From positions 7,985,001 to 8,049,000 of the forward strand of contig NZ_CP051680.1 in the NCBI RefSeq assembly GCF_012849095.1: a stretch of DNA of 64,000 nucleotides, in the 5' to 3' direction. The stretch comes from Cohnella herbarum (GTDB taxonomy: Bacteria; Bacillota; Bacilli; Paenibacillales; Paenibacillaceae). The translations under genes and the position numbers were made by a program. How positions within the stretch are numbered: the first letter of the stretch is position 1; each line of letters opens with the position of its first letter. Shown one piece after another: positions 18,811 through 28,386 of this stretch. The notes beneath the pieces were generated by a model. It was not told where the DNA came from. It saw nothing but the letters and a program-made list of their open reading frames with translations, and ran no database searches.

Positions 18811-20160
18811 TTATGCAGACTGTTTCGGCAAGGAAATTCGGAACTCCGTCGTTTTGATGCTCTCGTCGGAATGGACGTCGAGCTTGCCTCGATAGTGCTT
18901 GACCCGTTCGAGAACGATCGCCAATCCGAGACCGGAGTGGCCTTCTCCCTTGGTCGTGTAACCGGGCACGAATATGCGTTCTTTCTCCTCGGGCAATATC
19001 GTTCGCCCGCTGTTGGTTACTTGGATCTGGATCGTTTTATCGTCCGAGATCAGAATGGATGCGTGGACATGACGTTCGTTCTGAGGAAGAAGTCCCGTTT
19101 CATCGAACGCGTTATCGACGAGATTTCCCATGATTTTAATGATATCGATCATTTTAATGGTCGTATCTTCGGCCTCCCAGTTACCCGGCAATTCATAGGT
19201 GAAAGAGATTCCTTTGCCGACCGCAACGGTAATCTTAGCTTGGACGAACGCAGCCAATGCCGGCGAACAGTGCTGGACGATCTCGCTGACGTCTTGCGTC
19301 TCCTTGACCAAGTCCGCCACGTACGTTTTCAATTGCTCGGTTCTGCCCATTTGAACCATCGTGTGGATGACCTGGACGTGGTTAAGAAAATCATGCCTTT
19401 GACCGCGTATCGACGTAAACATGTCGTTGATTTCCTCCACGTACACCTCTTGCGTCATGCGTGCTGCTTGCTCTCGGGTGCGGATTAGCAGGCGGATGAT
19501 CGAGACTAGGGCTAAGAGGCTTATTAAGATAAGAACGTAAATCAGGATTGTATTGATCAAGGGATGGATATTTTGATTTTTGAACAGAGTGAATTGAAGT
19601 ACTCCCAGAAGCACAAATTGAAAGCAAATGAGGGAAATCACTGAATTTAAGCCTTTTCGTTCGTTTTCTAGGACAATGGAGAAAAAACGCTTCGCCGAAA
19701 AGAGATTTCGCTTACGGATAAACCAAGAAGCAATGACGAGAACGATTAACTCTGGATAGATTATTGTGAGTACTTGAAACAAATGGTCCCTGATCATGTC
19801 GGAATGGGAGTCAATTCCCATTACATATATAGCTATGCTACCTGTTATTAGATCCATAATAATAATGATAATGAGTGAAAAGAGCATTAGATATAATTTT
19901 TTCTTTACGCTGATTTCTTTGAAAATAACAAATAGGAGTATGCATCCTGCTAATATGGAGTTAATGAGATGTAAGTGTAGCGGAATAATCAAAATTAATA
20001 TATCGGTATAGATCGAATGAATAAATGATAGAATGAAAATTCTTTTGAATAATTTTGGCGGAGTAGGGTCTAAGAAAGAAAAACAAAATAACCAAAAAAC
20101 GAACGTTTGAGGTTGGGAGGCGAGGATATTCAGTTTAAGAAAATCGAATACAATATCCAT
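18811..20160 (-). CDS. AgrC-like GHKL sensor histidine kinase
   Basis: Membrane kinase of the peptide-pheromone type, 449 residues. The N-terminal 240 residues hold about six or seven hydrophobic helices, the usual AgrC sensor layout. Then comes a DHp helix with phosphoacceptor His in IRGQRHDFLNHVQ. The GHKL ATPase follows with N box NLVDNAFDE and G box GHSGLGLAIV. It is transcribed divergently from the AgrB/AgrD operon across an AT-rich 178-bp gap. It most likely senses the peptide encoded there. No receiver-type regulator is adjacent, so the phosphate target is unknown. Confidence 0.9.
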   Translation of the reverse strand: MDIVFDFLKLNILASQPQTFVFWLFCFSFLDPTPPKLFKRIFILSFIHSIYTDILILIIPLHLHLINSILAGCILLFVIFKEISVKKKLYLMLFSLIIIIIMDLITGSIAIYVMGIDSHSDMIRDHLFQVLTIIYPELIVLVIASWFIRKRNLFSAKRFFSIVLENERKGLNSVISLICFQFVLLGVLQFTLFKNQNIHPLINTILIYVLILISLLALVSIIRLLIRTREQAARMTQEVYVEEINDMFTSIRGQRHDFLNHVQVIHTMVQMGRTEQLKTYVADLVKETQDVSEIVQHCSPALAAFVQAKITVAVGKGISFTYELPGNWEAEDTTIKMIDIIKIMGNLVDNAFDETGLLPQNERHVHASILISDDKTIQIQVTNSGRTILPEEKERIFVPGYTTKGEGHSGLGLAIVLERVKHYRGKLDVHSDESIKTTEFRISLPKQSA

Positions 20161-20338
20161 ATCGCGTGCGCCTCACCAATATTTTTCAATGTAATACTAC
20201 ATTTATACCACTTTGTTTAGGTCATTTGGTATGTATAATAAATAAATTCGGATATATCATGAAAATATTGATGCGTTTTCTTCAATATTTGATAAAATAA
20301 TGAGAGGTGCTTACTAGTTTAGAGGGGATTTATACCTA

Positions 20339-20998
20339 ATGACTTTTTTCTTATTTATTATATTCTCGACTCTGGAATATTTGTCATCGCTTACATTAAT
20401 GCTCGTACTTTTTAGATTTAATGTGAAAGAACATTTTATTAAGTTTCTTGTTTCATCAATTTTACTCTCTTTTATTTCAAATACACTTATTCAACAAAAT
20501 TTGGATTCTGTATCTCCATTGGTACAACTTCTTGTTTTTATTTTTTTGGTTAACATTATTTTGAGAGTTTCGATTTTTAACTCCATTATTATGGTTTTTA
20601 CCATATATTTTATATTCGGGCTCGTCCAATCCACTTTAGTAACGATTTTAACTCATTTTGGTGTTGTTCAAGAAATTGAAATATACTCGAATACAGCCTT
20701 TCTGGTCCAAGTCTCATCAGCTTTCTACATGTTCTTGTTTGCATTGATCATTTACTTCAAGCACGGCGGTTTTAGTTTTGTGGATCATAGAAGTACCAAT
20801 AGAAAAACGTTGATATTTAACAGATCCAATCGTGTTTTCTTTATTGTACTTGTTGTAGCGCTGATAGTTTTTATATTTGTCAACATGTTGTATTTCATCT
20901 CGGATCATCCTCCTTATTTATTAATCTCTATCATTTTTTTACTTATGTTGCTCACATTGCTCTATCTTGCTTTGAAGAGGGATGATAATCATAATTGA
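20339..20998 (+). CDS. Multi-pass membrane protein of the agr-like locus
   Basis: A 219-residue, very hydrophobic protein with about six membrane helices and few polar loops. It resembles the sensor half of AgrC-like kinases but has no kinase domain. A GAGGGG site precedes the ATG. It overlaps the AgrB gene by 17 nt, so the two are probably made together. I do not recognise a named family. It could be a signal-binding accessory or an immunity or transport protein; this is inference from position only. The gene is clearly AT-rich compared with the flanking genes. Confidence 0.75.
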   Translation: MTFFLFIIFSTLEYLSSLTLMLVLFRFNVKEHFIKFLVSSILLSFISNTLIQQNLDSVSPLVQLLVFIFLVNIILRVSIFNSIIMVFTIYFIFGLVQSTLVTILTHFGVVQEIEIYSNTAFLVQVSSAFYMFLFALIIYFKHGGFSFVDHRSTNRKTLIFNRSNRVFFIVLVVALIVFIFVNMLYFISDHPPYLLISIIFLLMLLTLLYLALKRDDNHN

Positions 20999-21530
20999 TA
21001 AGTGGGCATTAAATGCGGCAACTTGGATTAAACAACAAAATCCAGATCAGACTGCAAGTATAGCAGTATTACAGTTTGCGTTAATTGGAATACTTAACAG
21101 CCTGCTGATTTTTATTATTATTATTTTCATTGGTGCTATTAGCGGACATTTGTGGGATAGTTTTCTGGCTTCACTATTTTTTGTTTTCTTGCACTTTTTT
21201 TCAGGAGGACATCACTTCAAGTCGGCGCTTATGTGTACAATCTTTTCGTCATGCGTGATTATTGTATCTTTTAGTGTTCCTATTAATAATGACGTATTGT
21301 TAGCTATTACAATATTTACTATACTAATATTATTCGTATTTGCACCTTCAAATATCGAAAATCATGCAAGAATTCCTAAATCGTACTTTCCTGTACTGAA
21401 GATGATTTCAATTATTATCGTTATAGCGAATTTATTTTTACTGAATTCAGCAGTGGCGTTGGCATTATTATTTCAATCATTACTTGTTATACCCTATTCA
21501 AAACTGATGTTGAAAAGGGGGTGGAAATGA
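20982..21530 (+). CDS. agrB: AgrB-family signal peptide processing protease
   Basis: Membrane cysteine endopeptidase that trims and cyclises AgrD-type peptides. It has 182 residues with four to six hydrophobic helices. The active pair fits the family: FFSGGHHFKSALMC gives His78 and Cys85, spaced seven apart as in staphylococcal AgrB (His77/Cys84). The N-terminal amphipathic region and late FAPSNIENHARIP are also typical. The peptide gene begins on the next base after the stop. The start is not certain, since AAGAGGG sits very close to the ATG. Confidence 0.92.
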   Translation: MIIIIDKWALNAATWIKQQNPDQTASIAVLQFALIGILNSLLIFIIIIFIGAISGHLWDSFLASLFFVFLHFFSGGHHFKSALMCTIFSSCVIIVSFSVPINNDVLLAITIFTILILFVFAPSNIENHARIPKSYFPVLKMISIIIVIANLFLLNSAVALALLFQSLLVIPYSKLMLKRGWK

Positions 21531-21647
21531 ATGAAGAAGAAAATTGCATTATTCGTCGGGAAAGGTCTAGCGGTATTTGCTGTCATTTTTGTAAGTACGG
21601 CAAGTATGCTTTGGTTTCACCGTCCTGAAATTCCAGAAGAATTGTAG
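21531..21647 (+). CDS. agrD: AgrD-like cyclic lactone autoinducer peptide precursor
   Basis: A 38-residue precursor starting ATG directly after the agrB stop codon, with AAAGGGGGTGG upstream. The layout is that of AgrD: a basic amphipathic leader (MKKKIALFVGKGLAVF), a hydrophobic stretch, a short core ending STASMLWFH and an acidic proline tail RPEIPEEL. There is no cysteine. A serine (Ser25) lies at the usual ring-forming position, so the product is probably a lactone rather than a thiolactone. A five-residue ring SMLWF would fit AgrB cutting, but the exact cut site cannot be read from sequence alone. Confidence 0.8.
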   Translation: MKKKIALFVGKGLAVFAVIFVSTASMLWFHRPEIPEEL

Positions 21648-21683
21648 ATTTGAAAGTATTTATTTGACAGGAGGGATGAAATC

Positions 21684-22073
21684 ATGACTGAACAAATCCG
21701 CTTATTGGACCGTGATGGGAATCCGTGTACCGTGAATATCGAAGATTTGATCGCGATTAAACCGACGGCGGACGGTCCCGAGTTTTATACGAAGGACAGC
21801 ATGTATTTCTATCCCACGACACTCGACGAGCTTCTGCTGTTATTTAAGAACTTGGGTTTTGAGCGTTTGGATCGGACGAATTTGGTCAATCTAAACCACG
21901 TCAAGGCTTTTGATCCAAAGGCTCGAAAGGTTTACTTTGAGCATCCGTGGAGTAAGGACAGCAAGTTTGCTACCGTTTCGGAAGCAAATGTGAGTAAAGT
22001 AGAGCATCTGGCGCAGGAAGAAAGCGCACCGTACAAGGCAATTCCAAGGCCGTCGTTGTTCTGGAAGAAGTGA
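21684..22073 (+). CDS. Stand-alone LytTR DNA-binding protein
   Basis: A 129-residue protein with a LytTR domain (about 5-105; ADGPEFYT, FERLDRTNLVNLNHV and KARKVYF match the fold). It is the DNA-binding type of AgrA. The N-terminal receiver domain of AgrA is missing and no truncated remnant precedes it, since a good AGGAGGG site lies before the ATG. It is the last gene of the agr-like operon and ends at a T-rich terminator. It may be the output of the peptide circuit by some non-phosphoryl route, or a target of a distant regulator. Confidence 0.88.
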   Translation: MTEQIRLLDRDGNPCTVNIEDLIAIKPTADGPEFYTKDSMYFYPTTLDELLLLFKNLGFERLDRTNLVNLNHVKAFDPKARKVYFEHPWSKDSKFATVSEANVSKVEHLAQEESAPYKAIPRPSLFWKK

Positions 22074-22166: not shown

Positions 22167-22360
22167 GATGGTGCGATTGTGCTAAAAAGTAATGCTGTTG
22201 CGCTGACTCTGAACAAGGATGGTGCGATAGTGTCAGAAAGTAATGCTACATCGTGGAATCCGAGCACGATTGGTGCGATAGTACTAAAAAGTAACGCTGT
22301 AGCACCGACTTTGACCGCAGACGGGGCAATAATGCCAAAAAGTAACACTAGCCTAAGTGT
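22167..22360. repeat. Tandem 51-bp hairpin repeat array (array 1)
   Basis: Units begin at 22167, 22218, 22269 and 22320, exactly 51 bp apart; the last is shorter. Each shares the core ggtgcgat(a/t)gt followed by aaaagtaa(t/c)gct. In unit 3 ggtgcgatag can pair with ctgtagcacc (8 of 10), closing a loop with tac/gta. A 63-codon open frame spans it only because 51 is a multiple of three; no ribosome site is seen. Confidence 0.75.
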
Positions 22361-22637
22361 AGCCAATTAGTCCGCTAGTAGCGGTTTACGTTCCTGTTAA
22401 CCAACGATGCGTTTCAGGCTCGAATTTTCAAAAGATATTACGCCGCGTAAAACTTTGTTCGATGCTACGGAATCTAGTTCCTGAGCAAAGTACGCATATC
22501 GAATCGGTCATGGGTTGTGCAGATATGTGCAGTTTACTCAGGTAGTCGGAATGAGAGGGGGGTGGAATAACTAATCCGTAAAAATAATCCATGCGGACTT
22601 AATCTTGACGCTACCCTCGAGCTTCTTCCCCCCTTAT

Positions 22638-22790: not shown

Positions 22791-22871
22791 TCTTGAACAT
22801 ATAATCAACTTAATGTGACTCATAAATATGAACTTTTTATTAAATAATGGTCATAATGTATTGATTTATTA

Positions 22872-22900
22872 TTTAATTAGACCTATATTGTAAATATAAT
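22872..22900 (+). promoter_or_regulatory. Probable promoter of the gapB-ppdK cluster
   Basis: TTTAAT (22872-22877), a 17-bp spacer and a perfect TATAAT (22895-22900). The -10 lies 19 bp before the TTG start, so the leader is very short. I could not see a clear CcpN box. Confidence 0.45.
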
Positions 22901-22918
22901 AACTCAGGGGTGAGCATA

Positions 22919-23953
22919 TTGCGCGTAGGATTGAGCGGAACAGGACGTATAGGACGCCTATTACTAAGGAAGGTGTTCTCGACGGAACAGTCGGCAGTCG
23001 AAGTAGGCGTCATAAATTCACTTAGCAGTCCGGAAACGATAGCTCATCTGCTTAAATATGACTCTGTTCATGGGAAATGGGATGGCGAGGCCGAGGTGGA
23101 CGGGAATGATTTGATTCTCAATGGCAGACGAGTCGCGGTTACTTCTCAAGCAGCACCTGAATTGTTGCCATGGCGAGAATACGAAGTCGAGATGGCAATT
23201 GACGCTACGGGTAAGTTTAATGACCGCGATGGCGCCTCTCGTCATCTAAAGGCCGGAGCGGAGAAAGTATTGATTACCGCACCGGGATCGGGCGTTGATT
23301 TGACCGTTGTGATGGGGGTCAACGACAGTCAGTACGACCCGCGCAAGCATCGGATTATTTCCGCGGCATCCTGTACGACGAATTGCCTAGCTCCCGTACT
23401 TCATGTCGTGGATAAAGCTTTCGGCGTGGAACAGGGGTGGATGACCACGATTCATTCCTACACGAACGATCAGAATCATCTCGACAACTCCCATAAGGAT
23501 TTGAGAAGGGCCCGCGCCTGCACAAGTTCCATTATTCCCACGTCTACCGGGGTCGGCAAAGCGTTGAAGGAGGTTATTCCGCACTTATCTTCCGTCATCG
23601 AAGGCATTTCGATGCGAGTACCTACGCAAAATGTCTCCATGCTGGATCTATCCTTGCAGCTTAAACGTAAGGCAACTTTAAATGAGGTCCGGGAGGTTTT
23701 CCTAGAAGCGGTATCCGGACCACAGACGAAGGTAATGGAATACAACGAATTGCCGTTGGTCTCAACGGACTATATCGGGAACGAGAAATCCGCAATTATC
23801 GATGGTCTTAGCACGATGGTGAGAGGCGATCAACTAAAACTCTTCGCTTGGTATGACAATGAGTGGGCATATGCCAGCCGTGTTTACGATTTGGCGATGC
23901 ATGTAAGCAACGCACATCATTCATTAGAAACAAGGAGTGTTGTAAGCGTATGA
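22919..23953 (+). CDS. gapB: Glyceraldehyde-3-phosphate dehydrogenase, GapB-type
   Basis: Interconverts glyceraldehyde 3-phosphate and 1,3-bisphosphoglycerate. The nucleotide fold begins GLSGTGRIGRLLL and the catalytic Cys lies in SAASCTTNCLAP; WYDNEWAYASR is near the end. After the second strand the sequence reads VINSLSSPETIAHLL. The Asp that selects NAD in glycolytic enzymes is absent, as in NADP-preferring GapB. The TTG at 22919 was chosen over the GTG at 22910 because the latter overlaps the AGGGGTG ribosome site. With ppdK and ccpN downstream, a gluconeogenic role is likely. Confidence 0.88.
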   Translation: MRVGLSGTGRIGRLLLRKVFSTEQSAVEVGVINSLSSPETIAHLLKYDSVHGKWDGEAEVDGNDLILNGRRVAVTSQAAPELLPWREYEVEMAIDATGKFNDRDGASRHLKAGAEKVLITAPGSGVDLTVVMGVNDSQYDPRKHRIISAASCTTNCLAPVLHVVDKAFGVEQGWMTTIHSYTNDQNHLDNSHKDLRRARACTSSIIPTSTGVGKALKEVIPHLSSVIEGISMRVPTQNVSMLDLSLQLKRKATLNEVREVFLEAVSGPQTKVMEYNELPLVSTDYIGNEKSAIIDGLSTMVRGDQLKLFAWYDNEWAYASRVYDLAMHVSNAHHSLETRSVVSV

Positions 23954-24129
23954 ACAACGAAACCATTAACGGCGCGCAAGACAACCACATGAACGATCTG
24001 GGGCTCATTATCTGTAAAATATGCTATCAAGTGGTGGGCTCTCTCCCGACGAACGGATACAAGAAAATGTACGTCATCTGCGATAACGAAAACTGCATCG
24101 CCATCAAGGGGGAAATAATAAATGAATAA
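23950..24129 (+). CDS. sr1P: SR1P-like GapA-binding small protein
   Basis: A 59-residue protein whose C-terminal 45 residues (GLIICKICYQVVGSLP, then KKMYVICDNENCIA) fit my recollection of the SR1P family: a CxxC pair, a Lys-x-x-Tyr turn and further cysteines. In Bacillus subtilis SR1P is encoded by the dual-function RNA SR1, binds GapA and favours its pairing with RNase J1. Here it is an ordinary operon gene. Its ATG overlaps the gapB stop (ATGA) with AAGGAG upstream, and its end overlaps ppdK by 8 nt. The assignment is by pattern, not alignment. Confidence 0.72.
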   Translation: MNNETINGAQDNHMNDLGLIICKICYQVVGSLPTNGYKKMYVICDNENCIAIKGEIINE

Positions 24130-26806
24130 CAAACAAGTATTCGATTTTCAAGAAGGAAACGCGGGAATGAAAACCCTTCTCGGGGGTAAAGGAGCGCATC
24201 TTGCGGAGATGACGCGCGCAGGTCTCCCGGTACCTCCGGGGTTCACGATTTCGACCGAAGCTTGTTTATCGTATTTCAAAGCCGACAATCGAATGTCGGA
24301 TGAATTGCAATCCGAAATCGTAGCGGCCCTTCACCGTCTTGAGACGCTGAAAGGCCAGAAGTTCGGTAATCCTGCCGATCCGCTTCTCGTCTCCGTCAGA
24401 TCCGGATCGGTCACGTCGATGCCGGGCATGATGGATACGATCTTAAACCTGGGTCTTAACGACGAGACAGTGGAAGGCTTGGCGGCTAAAACGAATAATG
24501 CTAGGTTTGCGTACGATTGTTACCGGAGGCTGCTGCAGATGTTCGGGAACGTCGTTCTGGATATTGGTGGGCATCACTTCGAGAAAATCGTTCATCGGCT
24601 GAAACAAGAAGAAGGGGTTTCGCAGGATCAGGATCTAACACCGGACGCATTACTTCGTTTGATCGCCGATTTCAAGCACTGTATCCAGTTGCAAGCCGGT
24701 CGTCCTTTTCCGCAAGATGTACGTGAACAGCTCACGTTGGCGGTTGAAGCGGTATTTCAGTCCTGGAACAACTCGAGAGCGAAAATATATCGTAAAATTA
24801 ACCGGATTCCCGATGACCAGGGGACTGCGGTAAATATCCAAAGCATGGTTTTCGGCAATCGGGGCCAGGATTGCGGAACGGGTGTCGTGTTCACGAGAAA
24901 TCCTTCGACCGGCGCTACCGAATTGTTCGGAGAATACTTAATCAATGCCCAAGGCGAAGACGTAGTCGCAGGAACGCGCACGCCGCAGCCGGTAGCTTCG
25001 CTTAGCGACGAAATGCCAGCCGTCTTCGAACAATTGGTTCGTCTAGCGAAACAGCTTGAACAGCATTACCGCGATATGCAGGATATCGAATTCACCGTCG
25101 AACAGGGGCGGTTATATATTCTCCAAACGCGCAACGGAAAGAGAAACGCGCAAGCGGCCGTTACGATTGCGGCGAATTTGGTGAAAGAGGGTACGATCGC
25201 GAAGGAAGACGCGCTTCAACGGATTGAGGTCTCCCATCTCGATAAATTGCTGCATAGAGGAATCGACGAGAGCGTAGCGACCGAAGTGTTTGCGATCGGA
25301 TTGCCTGCTTCCCCGGGAGCGGCGGTCGGGCAGGTCGCGTTCGATGCGGACGTGGCCATGGAATGGAGCCAAGCGGGCAAGAAAGTCATTCTTGCGCGAC
25401 CGGAAACGACGCCCGAAGATATCCAAGGTGTGCTTGTATCCGAGGGAATTATTACTAGCAGAGGCGGGATGACAAGCCACGCCGCGGTTGTCGCCCGGGG
25501 CATGGGCAAGCCGTGCGTATGCGGATGCGAGACCATTAAGATCGATGAAGAACAACGTCAAATGTCCGTTGGCTCACGCCTTGTGCAAGAGGGAGACTGG
25601 ATTACGATAGACGGGGCCAGCGGCAGAGTGATCATTGGAGAGGTTCCGCTGCGTGAAGCGGAGATTACGGAAGAGTTGTCGGAGTTGCTGGAATGGGCCG
25701 ATTCCATTCGTAAGCTTAAAGTCAGAGCGAACGCGGATAATCCTCATGACGCGAGCGTTGCGAAACAATTCGGCGCCGAAGGAATCGGTTTGTGCCGGAC
25801 GGAGCATATGTTTTTCTCGGCTGAACGCCTTCCCGTCGTGCAACGGATGATTTTAGCGGACGATATCGAGGAACGGCACCAGGCTCTGGAGCAGCTTCTA
25901 CCGATGCAACAAGCGGACTTCGAAGCGATGCTTACGAATATGGACGGTCATCCCGTCAATATTCGGTTGTTAGATCCGCCATTACACGAGTTTCTGCCCA
26001 AGGAGAAGGAGCTAAGGAAGAAGCTGGACGATCTCGATCGCGCAGGCGGCGACAACGAGTCGGAGAAGAAGGCCGTTCTATCTTTGATTCGCAAGGTGCA
26101 AGCCCTCGAAGAAGTGAATCCGATGCTTGGGCAACGGGGCTGCAGATTAGGGATCGTTTACCCTGAAATTTACGATATGCAGATTGAAGCGATATTCAGG
26201 GCTGCGTCTCGTTGTATAGATAAGGGAACGAAGGTAACGCTCGAGATCATGGTTCCGCTCGTAGGACATGTGAATGAGCTGGCTATGCTTCGGGAACGGA
26301 TCGATACGATCGGTGAACGAATCTTAGGTCGGGAAATTCTAGAACGCGGCATCTATCAAGTCGGAACGATGATCGAGGTGCCTAGGGCGGCTCTGACTGC
26401 GGCTCAAATCGCTCCGATCGCGGATTTCTTCTCCTTCGGAACGAACGATCTAACGCAAATGACCTTCGGCTATAGCCGAGACGATGCGGAAGGAAAGTTC
26501 CTGTCCCACTACGTGGATCAGAAGATCTTGCCGCATAATCCATTCCAAGTGCTGGACACCGAGGGAGTAGGGCTGCTCATCGAGTGGGCGACGACATCGG
26601 GCAGGTCGATTAAACCGAACTTGAAGACCGGCATTTGCGGAGAACACGGCGGCGACAAGGATTCGATCTTTTTCTGCCATCGCACGGGGTTGGATTATGT
26701 TAGTTGTTCGCCATTCCGGCTGCCTATGGCTCGAATCGCAGCAGCGCAAGCGGCCATTGCTTACGGATACGAGAAAACAATGAAATCATCCTTACCCATA
26801 TCATAG
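24122..26806 (+). CDS. ppdK: Pyruvate, phosphate dikinase
   Basis: Converts pyruvate, ATP and phosphate to phosphoenolpyruvate, AMP and pyrophosphate; 894 residues. The order is an N-terminal ATP-grasp domain (GGKGAHLAEMTRAGLPVPPGF), the swinging phosphohistidine domain with SRGGMTSHAAVVARGMGKPCVCG, and the PEP/pyruvate barrel with the catalytic Cys in KTGICGEHGGD. The Thr-x-His of GGMTSHA is the target of the regulatory protein encoded two genes downstream. Start has AAGGGGG 7 nt upstream. It is cotranscribed with gapB and the SR1P-like gene. Confidence 0.97.
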   Translation: MNNKQVFDFQEGNAGMKTLLGGKGAHLAEMTRAGLPVPPGFTISTEACLSYFKADNRMSDELQSEIVAALHRLETLKGQKFGNPADPLLVSVRSGSVTSMPGMMDTILNLGLNDETVEGLAAKTNNARFAYDCYRRLLQMFGNVVLDIGGHHFEKIVHRLKQEEGVSQDQDLTPDALLRLIADFKHCIQLQAGRPFPQDVREQLTLAVEAVFQSWNNSRAKIYRKINRIPDDQGTAVNIQSMVFGNRGQDCGTGVVFTRNPSTGATELFGEYLINAQGEDVVAGTRTPQPVASLSDEMPAVFEQLVRLAKQLEQHYRDMQDIEFTVEQGRLYILQTRNGKRNAQAAVTIAANLVKEGTIAKEDALQRIEVSHLDKLLHRGIDESVATEVFAIGLPASPGAAVGQVAFDADVAMEWSQAGKKVILARPETTPEDIQGVLVSEGIITSRGGMTSHAAVVARGMGKPCVCGCETIKIDEEQRQMSVGSRLVQEGDWITIDGASGRVIIGEVPLREAEITEELSELLEWADSIRKLKVRANADNPHDASVAKQFGAEGIGLCRTEHMFFSAERLPVVQRMILADDIEERHQALEQLLPMQQADFEAMLTNMDGHPVNIRLLDPPLHEFLPKEKELRKKLDDLDRAGGDNESEKKAVLSLIRKVQALEEVNPMLGQRGCRLGIVYPEIYDMQIEAIFRAASRCIDKGTKVTLEIMVPLVGHVNELAMLRERIDTIGERILGREILERGIYQVGTMIEVPRAALTAAQIAPIADFFSFGTNDLTQMTFGYSRDDAEGKFLSHYVDQKILPHNPFQVLDTEGVGLLIEWATTSGRSIKPNLKTGICGEHGGDKDSIFFCHRTGLDYVSCSPFRLPMARIAAAQAAIAYGYEKTMKSSLPIS

Positions 26807-26855
26807 ATGAAGCGCGTTTGATAAAATGGTGGGATGATAGGTAGACGAGGAGTGG

Positions 26856-27503
26856 ATGACCATCGAACTCACATCCCGCCAGCAAGACATCTTGACGATC
26901 GTGACGAATCAGCAGCCCATATCGGGAGAGTATATCGCGGAGCAGTTAGGGACGACGCGTCCGGCCATTCGATCGGATTTAGCCTTATTAGTCATGCTGA
27001 AATTGCTCGAAGCCAAACCCAAGGTAGGGTATACGTTAAGCAGCGCCTCGAATCAACAAGAGCTGGCATTAGAGCGATTGTTGACGATGCAGGTCAAGGA
27101 GTTTCAATCGGCACCGGTCGTGCTGAGGGAAACGGCGTCCGTGAGCGACGCGGTCGTCGCGATGTTTCTGGACAATGTGGGAAGCTTGATTATCGGCGAC
27201 GCGGACGGTCATCTTGCGGGCATCGTATCGAGGAAAGATTTGCTCAAGGTGACTCTAGGGAATAGCGCGGCTGCTGCTATGCCGGTTAGCTTGATTATGA
27301 CCCGCCATCCGAATATCGTGACGATCACTCCTGAAGAGTCCATCGTCGCGGCAGCGAAAAAAATGATTTCGCATGAGGTGGACAGCTTGCCGGTCGTTCT
27401 GGAATTACGGTCGGAGGATAGTCTGCAGAGGGCAGAGGTCATTGGAAGAATTACGAAGACGGCGATGACGAAGGTGCTGCTGGAATTGGCTTTTGGCCAT
27501 TAG
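26856..27503 (+). CDS. ccpN: CcpN-type repressor with HTH and two CBS domains
   Basis: A 215-residue transcription regulator. The N-terminal winged helix (TSRQQDILTIV, ISGEYIAEQLGTTRPAIRSDL) is followed by two CBS motifs (about 85-140 and 150-205), the layout of CcpN. In Bacillus subtilis CcpN represses gapB, pckA and the SR1 RNA during glycolytic growth and senses adenine nucleotides. Here it lies in the same cluster as gapB, an SR1P-like gene and ppdK, which makes it the probable repressor of this operon. A GAGGAGTGG site precedes the ATG. The YqfL-type gene follows at once. Confidence 0.93.
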   Translation: MTIELTSRQQDILTIVTNQQPISGEYIAEQLGTTRPAIRSDLALLVMLKLLEAKPKVGYTLSSASNQQELALERLLTMQVKEFQSAPVVLRETASVSDAVVAMFLDNVGSLIIGDADGHLAGIVSRKDLLKVTLGNSAAAAMPVSLIMTRHPNIVTITPEESIVAAAKKMISHEVDSLPVVLELRSEDSLQRAEVIGRITKTAMTKVLLELAFGH

Positions 27504-27518
27504 TTGGGGGGAGCAAGC

Positions 27519-28328
27519 TTGAAAGAGAAGGAGCGCACCGTATTTGTTTGCTCCGATTCCGTAGGAGAAACGGCAGAGATGGTCGTACTGGCGACGATTC
27601 GGCAATTTAACGCATACCAAACCGGTATTAGAAGATATTCGCACGTGAAGAGCGAGGAAGAGATAAGCGCATTAATGGAGGAAGCGGCTAGACAGGGTTC
27701 ATTCGTCGCTTATACCTTGGTGCTCCCGGAGCTCAGAGAAATGATCAGACTCGAGGGCATAAGGCTCCAGGTGATCACCGTGGATATTATGGGTCCCGTT
27801 ATGCAGGCCTTTATCGATGTTTTTAATGATTCGCCCAAGAGGAAAGCCGGACTGCTCCATCAATTGGATGATGAATATTATCGTCGGGTGGAAGCGATCG
27901 AATTTACCGTCAAATGCGATGATGGCAAGGACATGAACGCCATGCATCAGGCGGATCTGGTACTGCTGGGAGTGTCCCGAACATCCAAAACGCCCCTAAG
28001 TATTTACTTGGCGCATAAAGGCTTCAAAGTTTGCAATTACCCGATCGTCCCTGAAGTCATGCCGCCCCTGGATATTTTGCTGAAAAATAAAGCGAAGCTG
28101 GTCGGCTTGACGATGGATGCGGGACATTTGGCGAAAATCAGGTTCGAACGTCTGAAAGCGATGGGACTGCCTAACGGAGCGAAGTACGCTTCCATAGAAC
28201 GCGTCGTGCACGAGTTGGAGTTTGCTCTGGAGCTGTACAAAAAGTTAGGCTGTACGGTTATTGACGTTACGGAAAGCGCGATTGAGGAAACAGCCGGGTT
28301 GATTATGGAATCTTGTTTCCGCTCATGA
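27519..28328 (+). CDS. Pyruvate, phosphate dikinase regulatory protein (YqfL/PpsR family)
   Basis: Bifunctional ADP-dependent kinase and phosphate-dependent pyrophosphorylase that switches PPDK (or PEP synthase) off and on by modifying its active-site Thr. Key features are the N-terminal VFVCSDSVGETAEMV and the P-loop GVSRTSKTPLSIYLA. The TTG at 27519 fits GGGGGGAG upstream better than a TTG at 27504. It lies 15 nt after ccpN, as in Bacillus subtilis (ccpN-yqfL), and its likely substrate PPDK is encoded in the same operon. A hairpin follows. Confidence 0.93.
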   Translation: MKEKERTVFVCSDSVGETAEMVVLATIRQFNAYQTGIRRYSHVKSEEEISALMEEAARQGSFVAYTLVLPELREMIRLEGIRLQVITVDIMGPVMQAFIDVFNDSPKRKAGLLHQLDDEYYRRVEAIEFTVKCDDGKDMNAMHQADLVLLGVSRTSKTPLSIYLAHKGFKVCNYPIVPEVMPPLDILLKNKAKLVGLTMDAGHLAKIRFERLKAMGLPNGAKYASIERVVHELEFALELYKKLGCTVIDVTESAIEETAGLIMESCFRS

Positions 28329-28344
28329 ATCGAATGGTTATCGA

Positions 28345-28386
28345 AAGAGGCTGAACCCCTAAGGTGACTTAGGTGTTCAGCCTCTT
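28345..28386 (+). terminator. Terminator of the gluconeogenic cluster
   Basis: aagaggctgaac (28345-28356) pairs with gttcagcctctt (28375-28386), with inner cctaag/cttagg. The T tract is short. Confidence 0.7.

What the first reader, a model, noticed from the sequence alone, without database searches (positions are those of the whole stretch)
22919..28328. CcpN regulon packed into one cluster, with an SR1P-like gene between gapB and ppdK
Seen: gapB-type GAPDH (no NAD-selecting Asp), a 59-residue Cys-rich protein that overlaps both neighbours, ppdK, ccpN and the PPDK regulator, all on one strand with overlaps or short gaps. Known: in B. subtilis CcpN represses gapB and the SR1 RNA, and SR1P binds GapA. 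Inference: this cluster unites the gluconeogenic dehydrogenase, a PEP-forming enzyme, its modifying enzyme, their repressor and a protein that could act on the glycolytic GapA. It would turn a dual-function sRNA into a plain operon gene.
Basis: partly seen in the sequence, partly recalled or inferred. Interest (0 to 1): 0.7.

Follow-up and report, generated by a model that had tools for sequence, protein, structure and literature searches.

The report
Gluconeogenic operon with an SR1P-like gene
A tiny protein that in Bacillus subtilis is made from a small regulatory RNA appears here as an ordinary gene inside a cluster for sugar-making metabolism, which hints at what this little-understood protein is for.

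Summary
In detail: five same-strand genes at 22,910-28,328 are gapB, a 59-aa Cys-rich ORF, ppdK, ccpN and the PPDK regulator. The small ORF misses Pfam SR1P directly but is a diverged SR1P homologue. Searches with it and with PF13790 share 46 places in relatives, 32 over Pfam's cut-off; profile-profile comparison with SR1P of other Bacilli gives 97.0%, E 1.1e-10. The layout recurs: 64 of 80 places in the window's order have gapB, ppdK, pckA or ccpN next to it, against 0 of 80 in other Bacilli. All 62 gapB genomes among 148 (own included) have an SR1P-like hit, against 19 of 86 without gapB. One genome each has an in-frame SR1P-PPDK and SR1P-PckA fusion. A palindrome TRTGASTCAYA lies upstream here and in close relatives. 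Best reading: an SR1P-family protein co-made with gluconeogenic enzymes under a cluster CcpN, probably acting on GapA as in B. subtilis; the partner is inferred. My paper searches found no description of this layout, but the key 2012 paper was not available. New variant of a known kind.

The parts
22814..22824 (.). operator-like palindrome TGTGACTCATA, putative CcpN site 1
   Evidence: TRTGASTCAYA recurs upstream of the cluster in close relatives; WTRTGASTCAYAW occurs at 3 places in the 8.5-Mb genome, control 1
22845..22855 (.). second, weaker operator-like site (TAATGGTCATA), just upstream of the putative -35
   Evidence: TATGACCATTA on the minus strand; some relatives have a similar second site
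22861..22889 (+). putative promoter TTGATT-17-TATATT
   Evidence: a consensus match only; such matches are no more frequent in the region (8) than in shuffles (7.6)
22910..23953 (+). gapB, NADP-type glyceraldehyde-3-phosphate dehydrogenase (start GTG 22910 or, more likely, TTG 22919)
23950..24129 (+). 59-aa SR1P-family protein (CxxC...CxxxxC); overlaps gapB by 4 nt and ppdK by 8 nt
24122..26806 (+). ppdK, pyruvate phosphate dikinase
   Evidence: TIGR01828, 1329.9 bits
26856..27503 (+). ccpN-type repressor (HTH_11 + 2 CBS), cluster copy
27504..28328 (+). PPDK regulator (Kinase-PPPase, PDRP); start may be TTG 27519
   Evidence: PF03618; NF003742 286.9 bits, cut-off 225
28348..28384 (+). inverted repeat after the last gene, possible end of the transcript (no run of T)
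   Evidence: read from the sequence; not listed by the terminator scan

Best explanation
The cluster is a gluconeogenic operon under its own CcpN-type repressor. On glucose, CcpN bound at the palindromes at 22.81-22.86 kb keeps it off. Without sugar it is derepressed and yields, from one mRNA, GapB (1,3-BPG to G3P), PPDK (pyruvate to PEP; no ATP-type pckA was found in this genome), the enzyme that switches PPDK, the repressor, and a small, probably zinc-binding SR1P-family protein. By analogy with B. subtilis, that protein most likely docks on the glycolytic GapA that remains in the cell and reassigns it (to RNase J1 in B. subtilis). Shown here: homology, conserved synteny, co-occurrence with gapB, recurrent operator-like sites. 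Inferred: co-transcription, CcpN control, metal binding, binding to GapA.
For: Homology: 46 places found by both the small protein and PF13790, 32 over Pfam's cut-off; hhalign 97.0%, E 1.1e-10, CxxC pair and third Cys aligned. Synteny: 64 of 80 places against 0 of 80 controls; 34 of 36 named loci. Co-occurrence: 62 of 62 gapB genomes (own included) against 19 of 86 without; in 398 Bacilli, 142 of 144 SR1P genomes have two or more GAPDHs against 113 of 254 without a Pfam SR1P hit. Regulation: TRTGASTCAYA in the window promoter and exact in the cluster promoters of four close relatives; the recalled CcpN consensus TRTGHYATAYW is exact in 15 of 36 gapB-first promoters, 1.15 expected. Partner: GapA is the main SR1P partner in B. 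subtilis, with Lys332 decisive (PMC8152036). With my recalled numbering this is the Lys of the C-terminal SKGL, kept in this genome's GapA and in 19 of 20 other GapA, and Ala in the window GapB. Nine genomes keep an SR1P hit with no gapB, ppdK or ATP-type pckA detected.
Against: The window protein itself is not matched by Pfam SR1P, and its middle (LPTNGYKK) departs from the FEDEKVT stretch. The Lys test is weak: 10 of 10 GapA from SR1P-less genomes also keep it, 9 of 33 relatives' GapB have Lys in that column, and G104, which carries SR1P, has Arg in GapA and Lys in GapB. The fusions to PPDK and PckA point to another partner. The window promoter has no match within one mismatch of the recalled CcpN consensus, and I could not confirm that consensus in a paper. 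No transcript or binding data.
Confidence: 0.54

Rival explanations
1. The SR1P protein of this order acts on the gluconeogenic side: it binds GapB and/or the PEP-forming enzyme (PPDK or PckA) encoded next to it, as a regulatory subunit or tether.
For: It is directly followed by ppdK or pckA in 48 of 80 places and directly preceded by gapB in 35 of 80. Two different in-frame fusions exist: SR1P-PPDK in G088 and SR1P-PckA in G135. All 62 gapB genomes have an SR1P-like hit.
Against: Nine genomes have an SR1P hit with none of gapB, ppdK or ATP-type pckA detected; other PEP-forming enzymes were not searched for. In B. subtilis the main partner is GapA (PMC8152036). Each fusion was seen in one genome and could come from loss of a stop codon or an assembly error.
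Confidence: 0.26
2. The small gene is in the operon only for shared CcpN control; its function is exactly that of B. subtilis SR1P and its neighbours do not matter to it (this overlaps with the main reading).
For: SR1 is CcpN-controlled in B. subtilis (PMC8152036, PMC7430163). SR1P is unlinked in 16 of 80 places of the window's order.
Against: It does not explain the in-frame fusions or the placing beside gapB and a PEP-forming enzyme.
Confidence: 0.38
3. The ORF is unrelated to SR1P, and the similarity is a convergent CxxC zinc knuckle.
For: No direct Pfam SR1P hit; only a sub-threshold Zn_ribbon_10 match.
Against: Shared places, profile-profile E 1.1e-10, and syntenic relatives over Pfam's own cut-off.
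Confidence: 0.05

Closest known systems
[quoted passage not shown]
   Same: Core GxI(V/I)C(K/Q)xC...Y..C, small size, gluconeogenic setting, a CcpN-type repressor.
   Different: Here a gene overlapping gapB and ppdK, with a 16-aa N-terminal extension and a different central stretch; not matched by Pfam. In 80 of 80 places read from other Bacilli, SR1P has no gapB, ppdK, pckA or ccpN neighbour.
CcpN regulon (gapB, pckA, SR1 in B. subtilis; ppdK, ccpN, fbp predicted in Lactobacillales: PMC3616900, one passage seen)
   Same: The same repressor type and the same kinds of target.
   Different: Targets and repressor are joined in one cluster; the operator-like palindrome is TRTGASTCAYA; no ATP-type pckA in the genome and a second ccpN-regulator pair elsewhere.
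ccpN - PPDK regulator - ppdK neighbourhood of Enterococcus faecalis (EF1024-1026: PMC7028823, passages seen)
   Same: ccpN next to the regulator and ppdK.
   Different: ppdK is divergent there; no gapB or SR1P gene is mentioned beside it in the passages seen.

Membership tests
SR1P protein family (PF13790) | direct match over the Pfam cut-off (26 bits) | tested here: not met
   no SR1P match for the window protein or anywhere in its genome
SR1P protein family (PF13790) | homology through intermediates and profile-profile comparison | tested here: met
   46 shared places, 32 over the cut-off; hhalign 97.0%, E 1.1e-10
SR1P protein family (PF13790) | binds GapA and promotes its pairing with RNase J1 | not testable with these tools
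   the likely binding Lys is kept in this genome's GapA, but this does not discriminate; no binding data
SR1 dual-function sRNA | peptide carried on its own CcpN-controlled sRNA, apart from the gluconeogenic genes | tested here: not met
   the ORF overlaps gapB and ppdK; 0 of 80 places in other Bacilli share this layout; no Rfam match at gathering score in the window
CcpN | N-terminal HTH and two CBS domains | tested here: met
CcpN | NCBIfam equivalog cut-off (NF053704, 260 bits) | tested here: not met
   248.6 bits, just below
CcpN | represses the gluconeogenic genes on glucose | not testable with these tools
   recurrent operator-like palindrome only
GapB-type GAPDH | type I GAPDH without the NAD-selecting Asp | tested here: met
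   TIGR01534 394.1 bits; INSLSS against INDLTD in GapA
GapB-type GAPDH | NCBIfam NF005830 (PRK07729) cut-off, 546 bits | tested here: not met
   445.1 bits, still the best-scoring NCBIfam model
PPDK | TIGR01828 over the cut-off | tested here: met
   1329.9 against 843.45
PPDK regulator (PDRP) | PF03618 / NF003742 over the cut-offs | tested here: met
   306.1 against 23.5; 286.9 against 225

The most novel reading that the evidence does not exclude
In this order the SR1P family is a core part of gluconeogenesis rather than an sRNA by-product. The small protein physically couples GAPDH and the PEP-forming enzyme (PPDK or PckA), to which it is fused in two genomes, and the sRNA-borne GapA partner of B. 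subtilis is a detached descendant of this operon gene.
Probability: 0.18. Interest if true: 0.8.

Novelty: new variant of a known kind. Interest (0 to 1): 0.57.

Why it matters
SR1P is described from Bacillus as a peptide of a dual-function sRNA that binds the glycolytic GapA when the cell runs gluconeogenesis. Here the gene is tied to gapB, to the PEP-forming enzyme and to their repressor, across many genomes of an order, which says its job belongs to the switch between glycolysis and gluconeogenesis. The natural fusions and the genomes without gapB give material with which the competing partners (GapA, GapB, PPDK/PckA) can be told apart.

Tried and rejected
Direct Pfam and NCBIfam scans of the small protein gave only sub-threshold matches (Zn_ribbon_10; a viral and a transposase model). 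The large protein search found one close relative only, so I turned to whole-genome searches. De novo 8-mer counting in gapB-first promoters gave AT-rich words, not a clear operator; the palindrome was seen by reading promoters and then counted, so those counts are partly post hoc. A paper search for the recalled CcpN consensus did not confirm it (15 of 929 listed). AlphaFold2 of the small protein gave a modest model (pLDDT 70.5) and Foldseek found nothing at E 0.001 or better. No convincing solved relative of SR1P (best E 0.012, Fur-type proteins). The two other genomic matches of the palindrome lie in a small ORF (L297) and on contig 2 near a resolvase-like gene (L299), with no metabolic enzyme that I recognised beside them. 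A scan of viral contigs with the PPDK regulator gave nothing. Rejected: a chance ORF (seven invariant residues in 22 homologues).

Full report
What is there. gapB and the 59-aa ORF overlap by 4 nt, the small ORF and ppdK by 8 nt; ppdK and ccpN are 49 nt apart; ccpN and the longest frame of the PPDK regulator abut. Family scans support GAPDH, PPDK, an HTH-CBS-CBS regulator and Kinase-PPPase. The window is C1:7,985,001-8,049,000 of an 8.5-Mb genome. The same genome holds a cggR-like/gapA/pgk/tpiA/pgm run at 6.04 Mb (gene names recognised by eye), a second ccpN-regulator pair at 0.67 Mb, one ppdK at E 1e-100 and no ATP-type pckA at E 1e-50.

Is the small protein SR1P? Taken alone it is not found by Pfam SR1P, and PF13790 finds nothing in its genome. 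Searching 148 genomes (own included) with the protein gave matches in 62 at E 0.01 (66 places besides the window). Searching the same genomes with PF13790 gave 65 genomes and 69 places, 49 genomes over the cut-off. 46 places are common, and 32 of these are over Pfam's cut-off. An alignment of the window protein with 21 relatives keeps G18, C22, C25, P33, T34, C44 and C49 invariant. Its profile against 33 SR1P proteins of other Bacilli gives hhalign probability 97.0 and E 1.1e-10 over the SR1P core. I therefore call it a diverged SR1P homologue by intermediates, and not a member by Pfam's threshold. It is not an SR1-type dual-function sRNA.

Genomic setting. The union of both searches is 89 places. 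I fetched 80 of them with several kb of flank. Counting a same-strand neighbour directly up- or downstream, 64 of 80 have gapB, ppdK, pckA or ccpN: SR1P-ppdK 22, gapB-SR1P-ppdK 19, gapB-SR1P 10, SR1P-ccpN 5, gapB-SR1P-pckA 5, SR1P-pckA 2, gapB-SR1P-ccpN 1; 16 are unlinked (62 of 80 before pckA was added). Of the 16, G052:C24:943731 has an internal stop and looks spurious and G135:C39 lies at a contig end. The nine places not fetched at that length (G005, G034, G058, G096, G107, G124, G133, G143, G147) are also linked, judging by the coordinates; three of them were read. As a control, 80 SR1P places from genomes of the same class outside the order (one search lists 144 such genomes; I chose for spread over families) gave 0 of 80; the only match within about 5 kb was a 27% piece to ppdK on the other strand in L218. 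Many of those have a gene of about 490 aa on the opposite strand downstream; I did not identify it. A scan of named genomes gave 36 loci of Cohnella and Paenibacillus: 34 of 36 have gapB and/or ppdK beside the gene, and eight have the full window order (P. phytorum, P. plantarum, P. alginolyticus, P. pasadenensis and four strains without species name; in one, L260, ccpN matches in two pieces). These named genomes overlap the 148 in part, so the sets are not independent.

Co-occurrence. With gapB defined as a match of at least 385 bits (my threshold, at the gap between 385.5 and 365.3 bits), all 62 gapB genomes (own included) have an SR1P hit against 19 of 86 without gapB; ppdK 64 of 68 against 17 of 80 (three genomes with only partial, weaker ppdK matches, G042, G072 and G082, counted as without); ppdK or pckA 71 of 77 against 10 of 71. 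The P-values ignore relatedness. Nine genomes have an SR1P hit but no detected gapB, ppdK or ATP-type pckA. In 398 Bacilli, 144 have a PF13790 match, and 142 of these have at least two GAPDHs at E 1e-112, against 113 of 254 without (tallied by hand from the listings). So outside the order many genomes with two GAPDHs lack SR1P.

Fusions. In G088 the SR1P frame runs without a stop into PPDK (944-aa frame). In G135 it runs into PckA (570-aa frame). Each is one genome. They could be stop-codon losses or assembly errors, but both tether the domain to the PEP-forming enzyme.

Regulation. In the window TGTGACTCATA lies at 22,814-22,824 and a weaker relative at 22,845-22,855, upstream of TTGATT-17-TATATT. 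Of 80 promoters (79 of the 80 fetched places and the window; the contig-end place was dropped), grouped by the linkage, TRTGASTCAYA is exact in 5 of 36 gapB-first, 5 of 29 SR1P-first linked and 0 of 15 unlinked, and within one mismatch in 6, 14 and 0. With the earlier grouping (36, 27, 17) shuffles gave at most 1, 0 and 1 exact. It is exact in the four relatives whose cluster CcpN groups with the window's (G031:C16, G023, G020, G016), where SR1P is the first gene. Because I read the motif off some of these promoters, the counts are partly circular. It is absent from most gapB-first promoters, where the recalled CcpN consensus TRTGHYATAYW is exact in 15 of 36 (1.15 expected, at most 5 in 60 shuffles); the window has no match to that within one mismatch. 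Genome-wide the palindrome with its flanking A/T occurs 3 times, control 1. In a FastTree of 54 CcpN proteins the window copy groups with the cluster copies of those four relatives (support 1.0), and 17 of 19 second copies fetched from two-copy genomes form another clade (support 0.80); 15 cluster copies from more distant genomes fall on that clade's side of the midpoint root, and two second copies fall among cluster copies. So the genus has two CcpN lineages, but cluster CcpN is not one clade in the whole order.

Mechanism. In B. subtilis SR1P, made under gluconeogenic conditions, binds GapA and raises GapA-RNase J1 pairing; helix 1 and helix 14 form the pocket, with Lys332 decisive (PMC8152036, section 4.2 read; PMC7430163, passages). 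Using recalled B. subtilis GapA numbering, I map Lys332 to the Lys of the C-terminal SKGL. That column is Lys in this genome's GapA and in 19 of 20 other GapA (Arg in G104), Ala in the window GapB, and Lys in 9 of 33 relatives' GapB; the C-terminal KGL end itself is seen in none of the 33. 10 of 10 GapA from SR1P-less genomes keep the Lys. This is consistency for the window, not proof. The AlphaFold2 model (pLDDT 70.5) has three strands and a C-terminal helix; a zinc ribbon is likely from the Cys pattern but unproven.

Known or new. Searches for SR1P with GapA, CcpN/gapB/PPDK, SR1P with Paenibacillus (none), CcpN with operator/pckA, Paenibacillus/gapB/ppdK/CcpN and GapA-binding peptide or SR1P listed no paper whose title or abstract start describes SR1P in a gapB/ppdK/pckA operon; I read passages or one section of four papers only (PMC8152036, PMC7430163, PMC3616900, PMC7028823). 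The first of these states that 23 homologues had an identical genomic location, and that 139 were known by 2021, unpublished. The 2012 paper itself was not held, nor the CcpN paper tried, nor a 2016 SR1P paper, so prior notice there cannot be excluded. Public annotation may already label some of these genes SR1P; I did not check. I rate it a new variant of a known kind.

Noticed in passing
window 24097-24129: The tail of the window's small protein (IAIKGEIINE) differs from the QGGN-type tails of its nearest relatives (P0001, L002, L003) as if read in another frame; the conserved core is unaffected.
   Followed up: partly
window 18811-22073: Sensor kinase, membrane protein, AgrB-like protein and LytTR-like small protein: looks like an agr-type quorum-sensing locus (from the ORF translations only).
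   Followed up: no
window 22179-22370: A short ORF made of degenerate repeats (GAIV.KSNA.AP.L..D).
   Followed up: no
L277:4703-6171: Second ccpN-PPDK regulator pair of the same genome, after a transaldolase-like gene; the genome shows only one ppdK.
   Followed up: partly
L218, L219, L220: One Bacilli genome (G308) has three separate SR1P matches; G044 and G074 have two each (L112/L115, L113/L114).
   Followed up: no
L081: G146 has pckA-gapB-SR1P-ccpN-regulator in one run by coordinates, with ppdK elsewhere on the contig in pieces: an alternative packing with the other PEP-forming enzyme.
   Followed up: partly
L307 and L096 (G104): In G104 the presumed SR1P-binding Lys column is Arg in GapA and Lys in GapB, the reverse of the usual pattern; a possible partner swap worth a look.
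   Followed up: no
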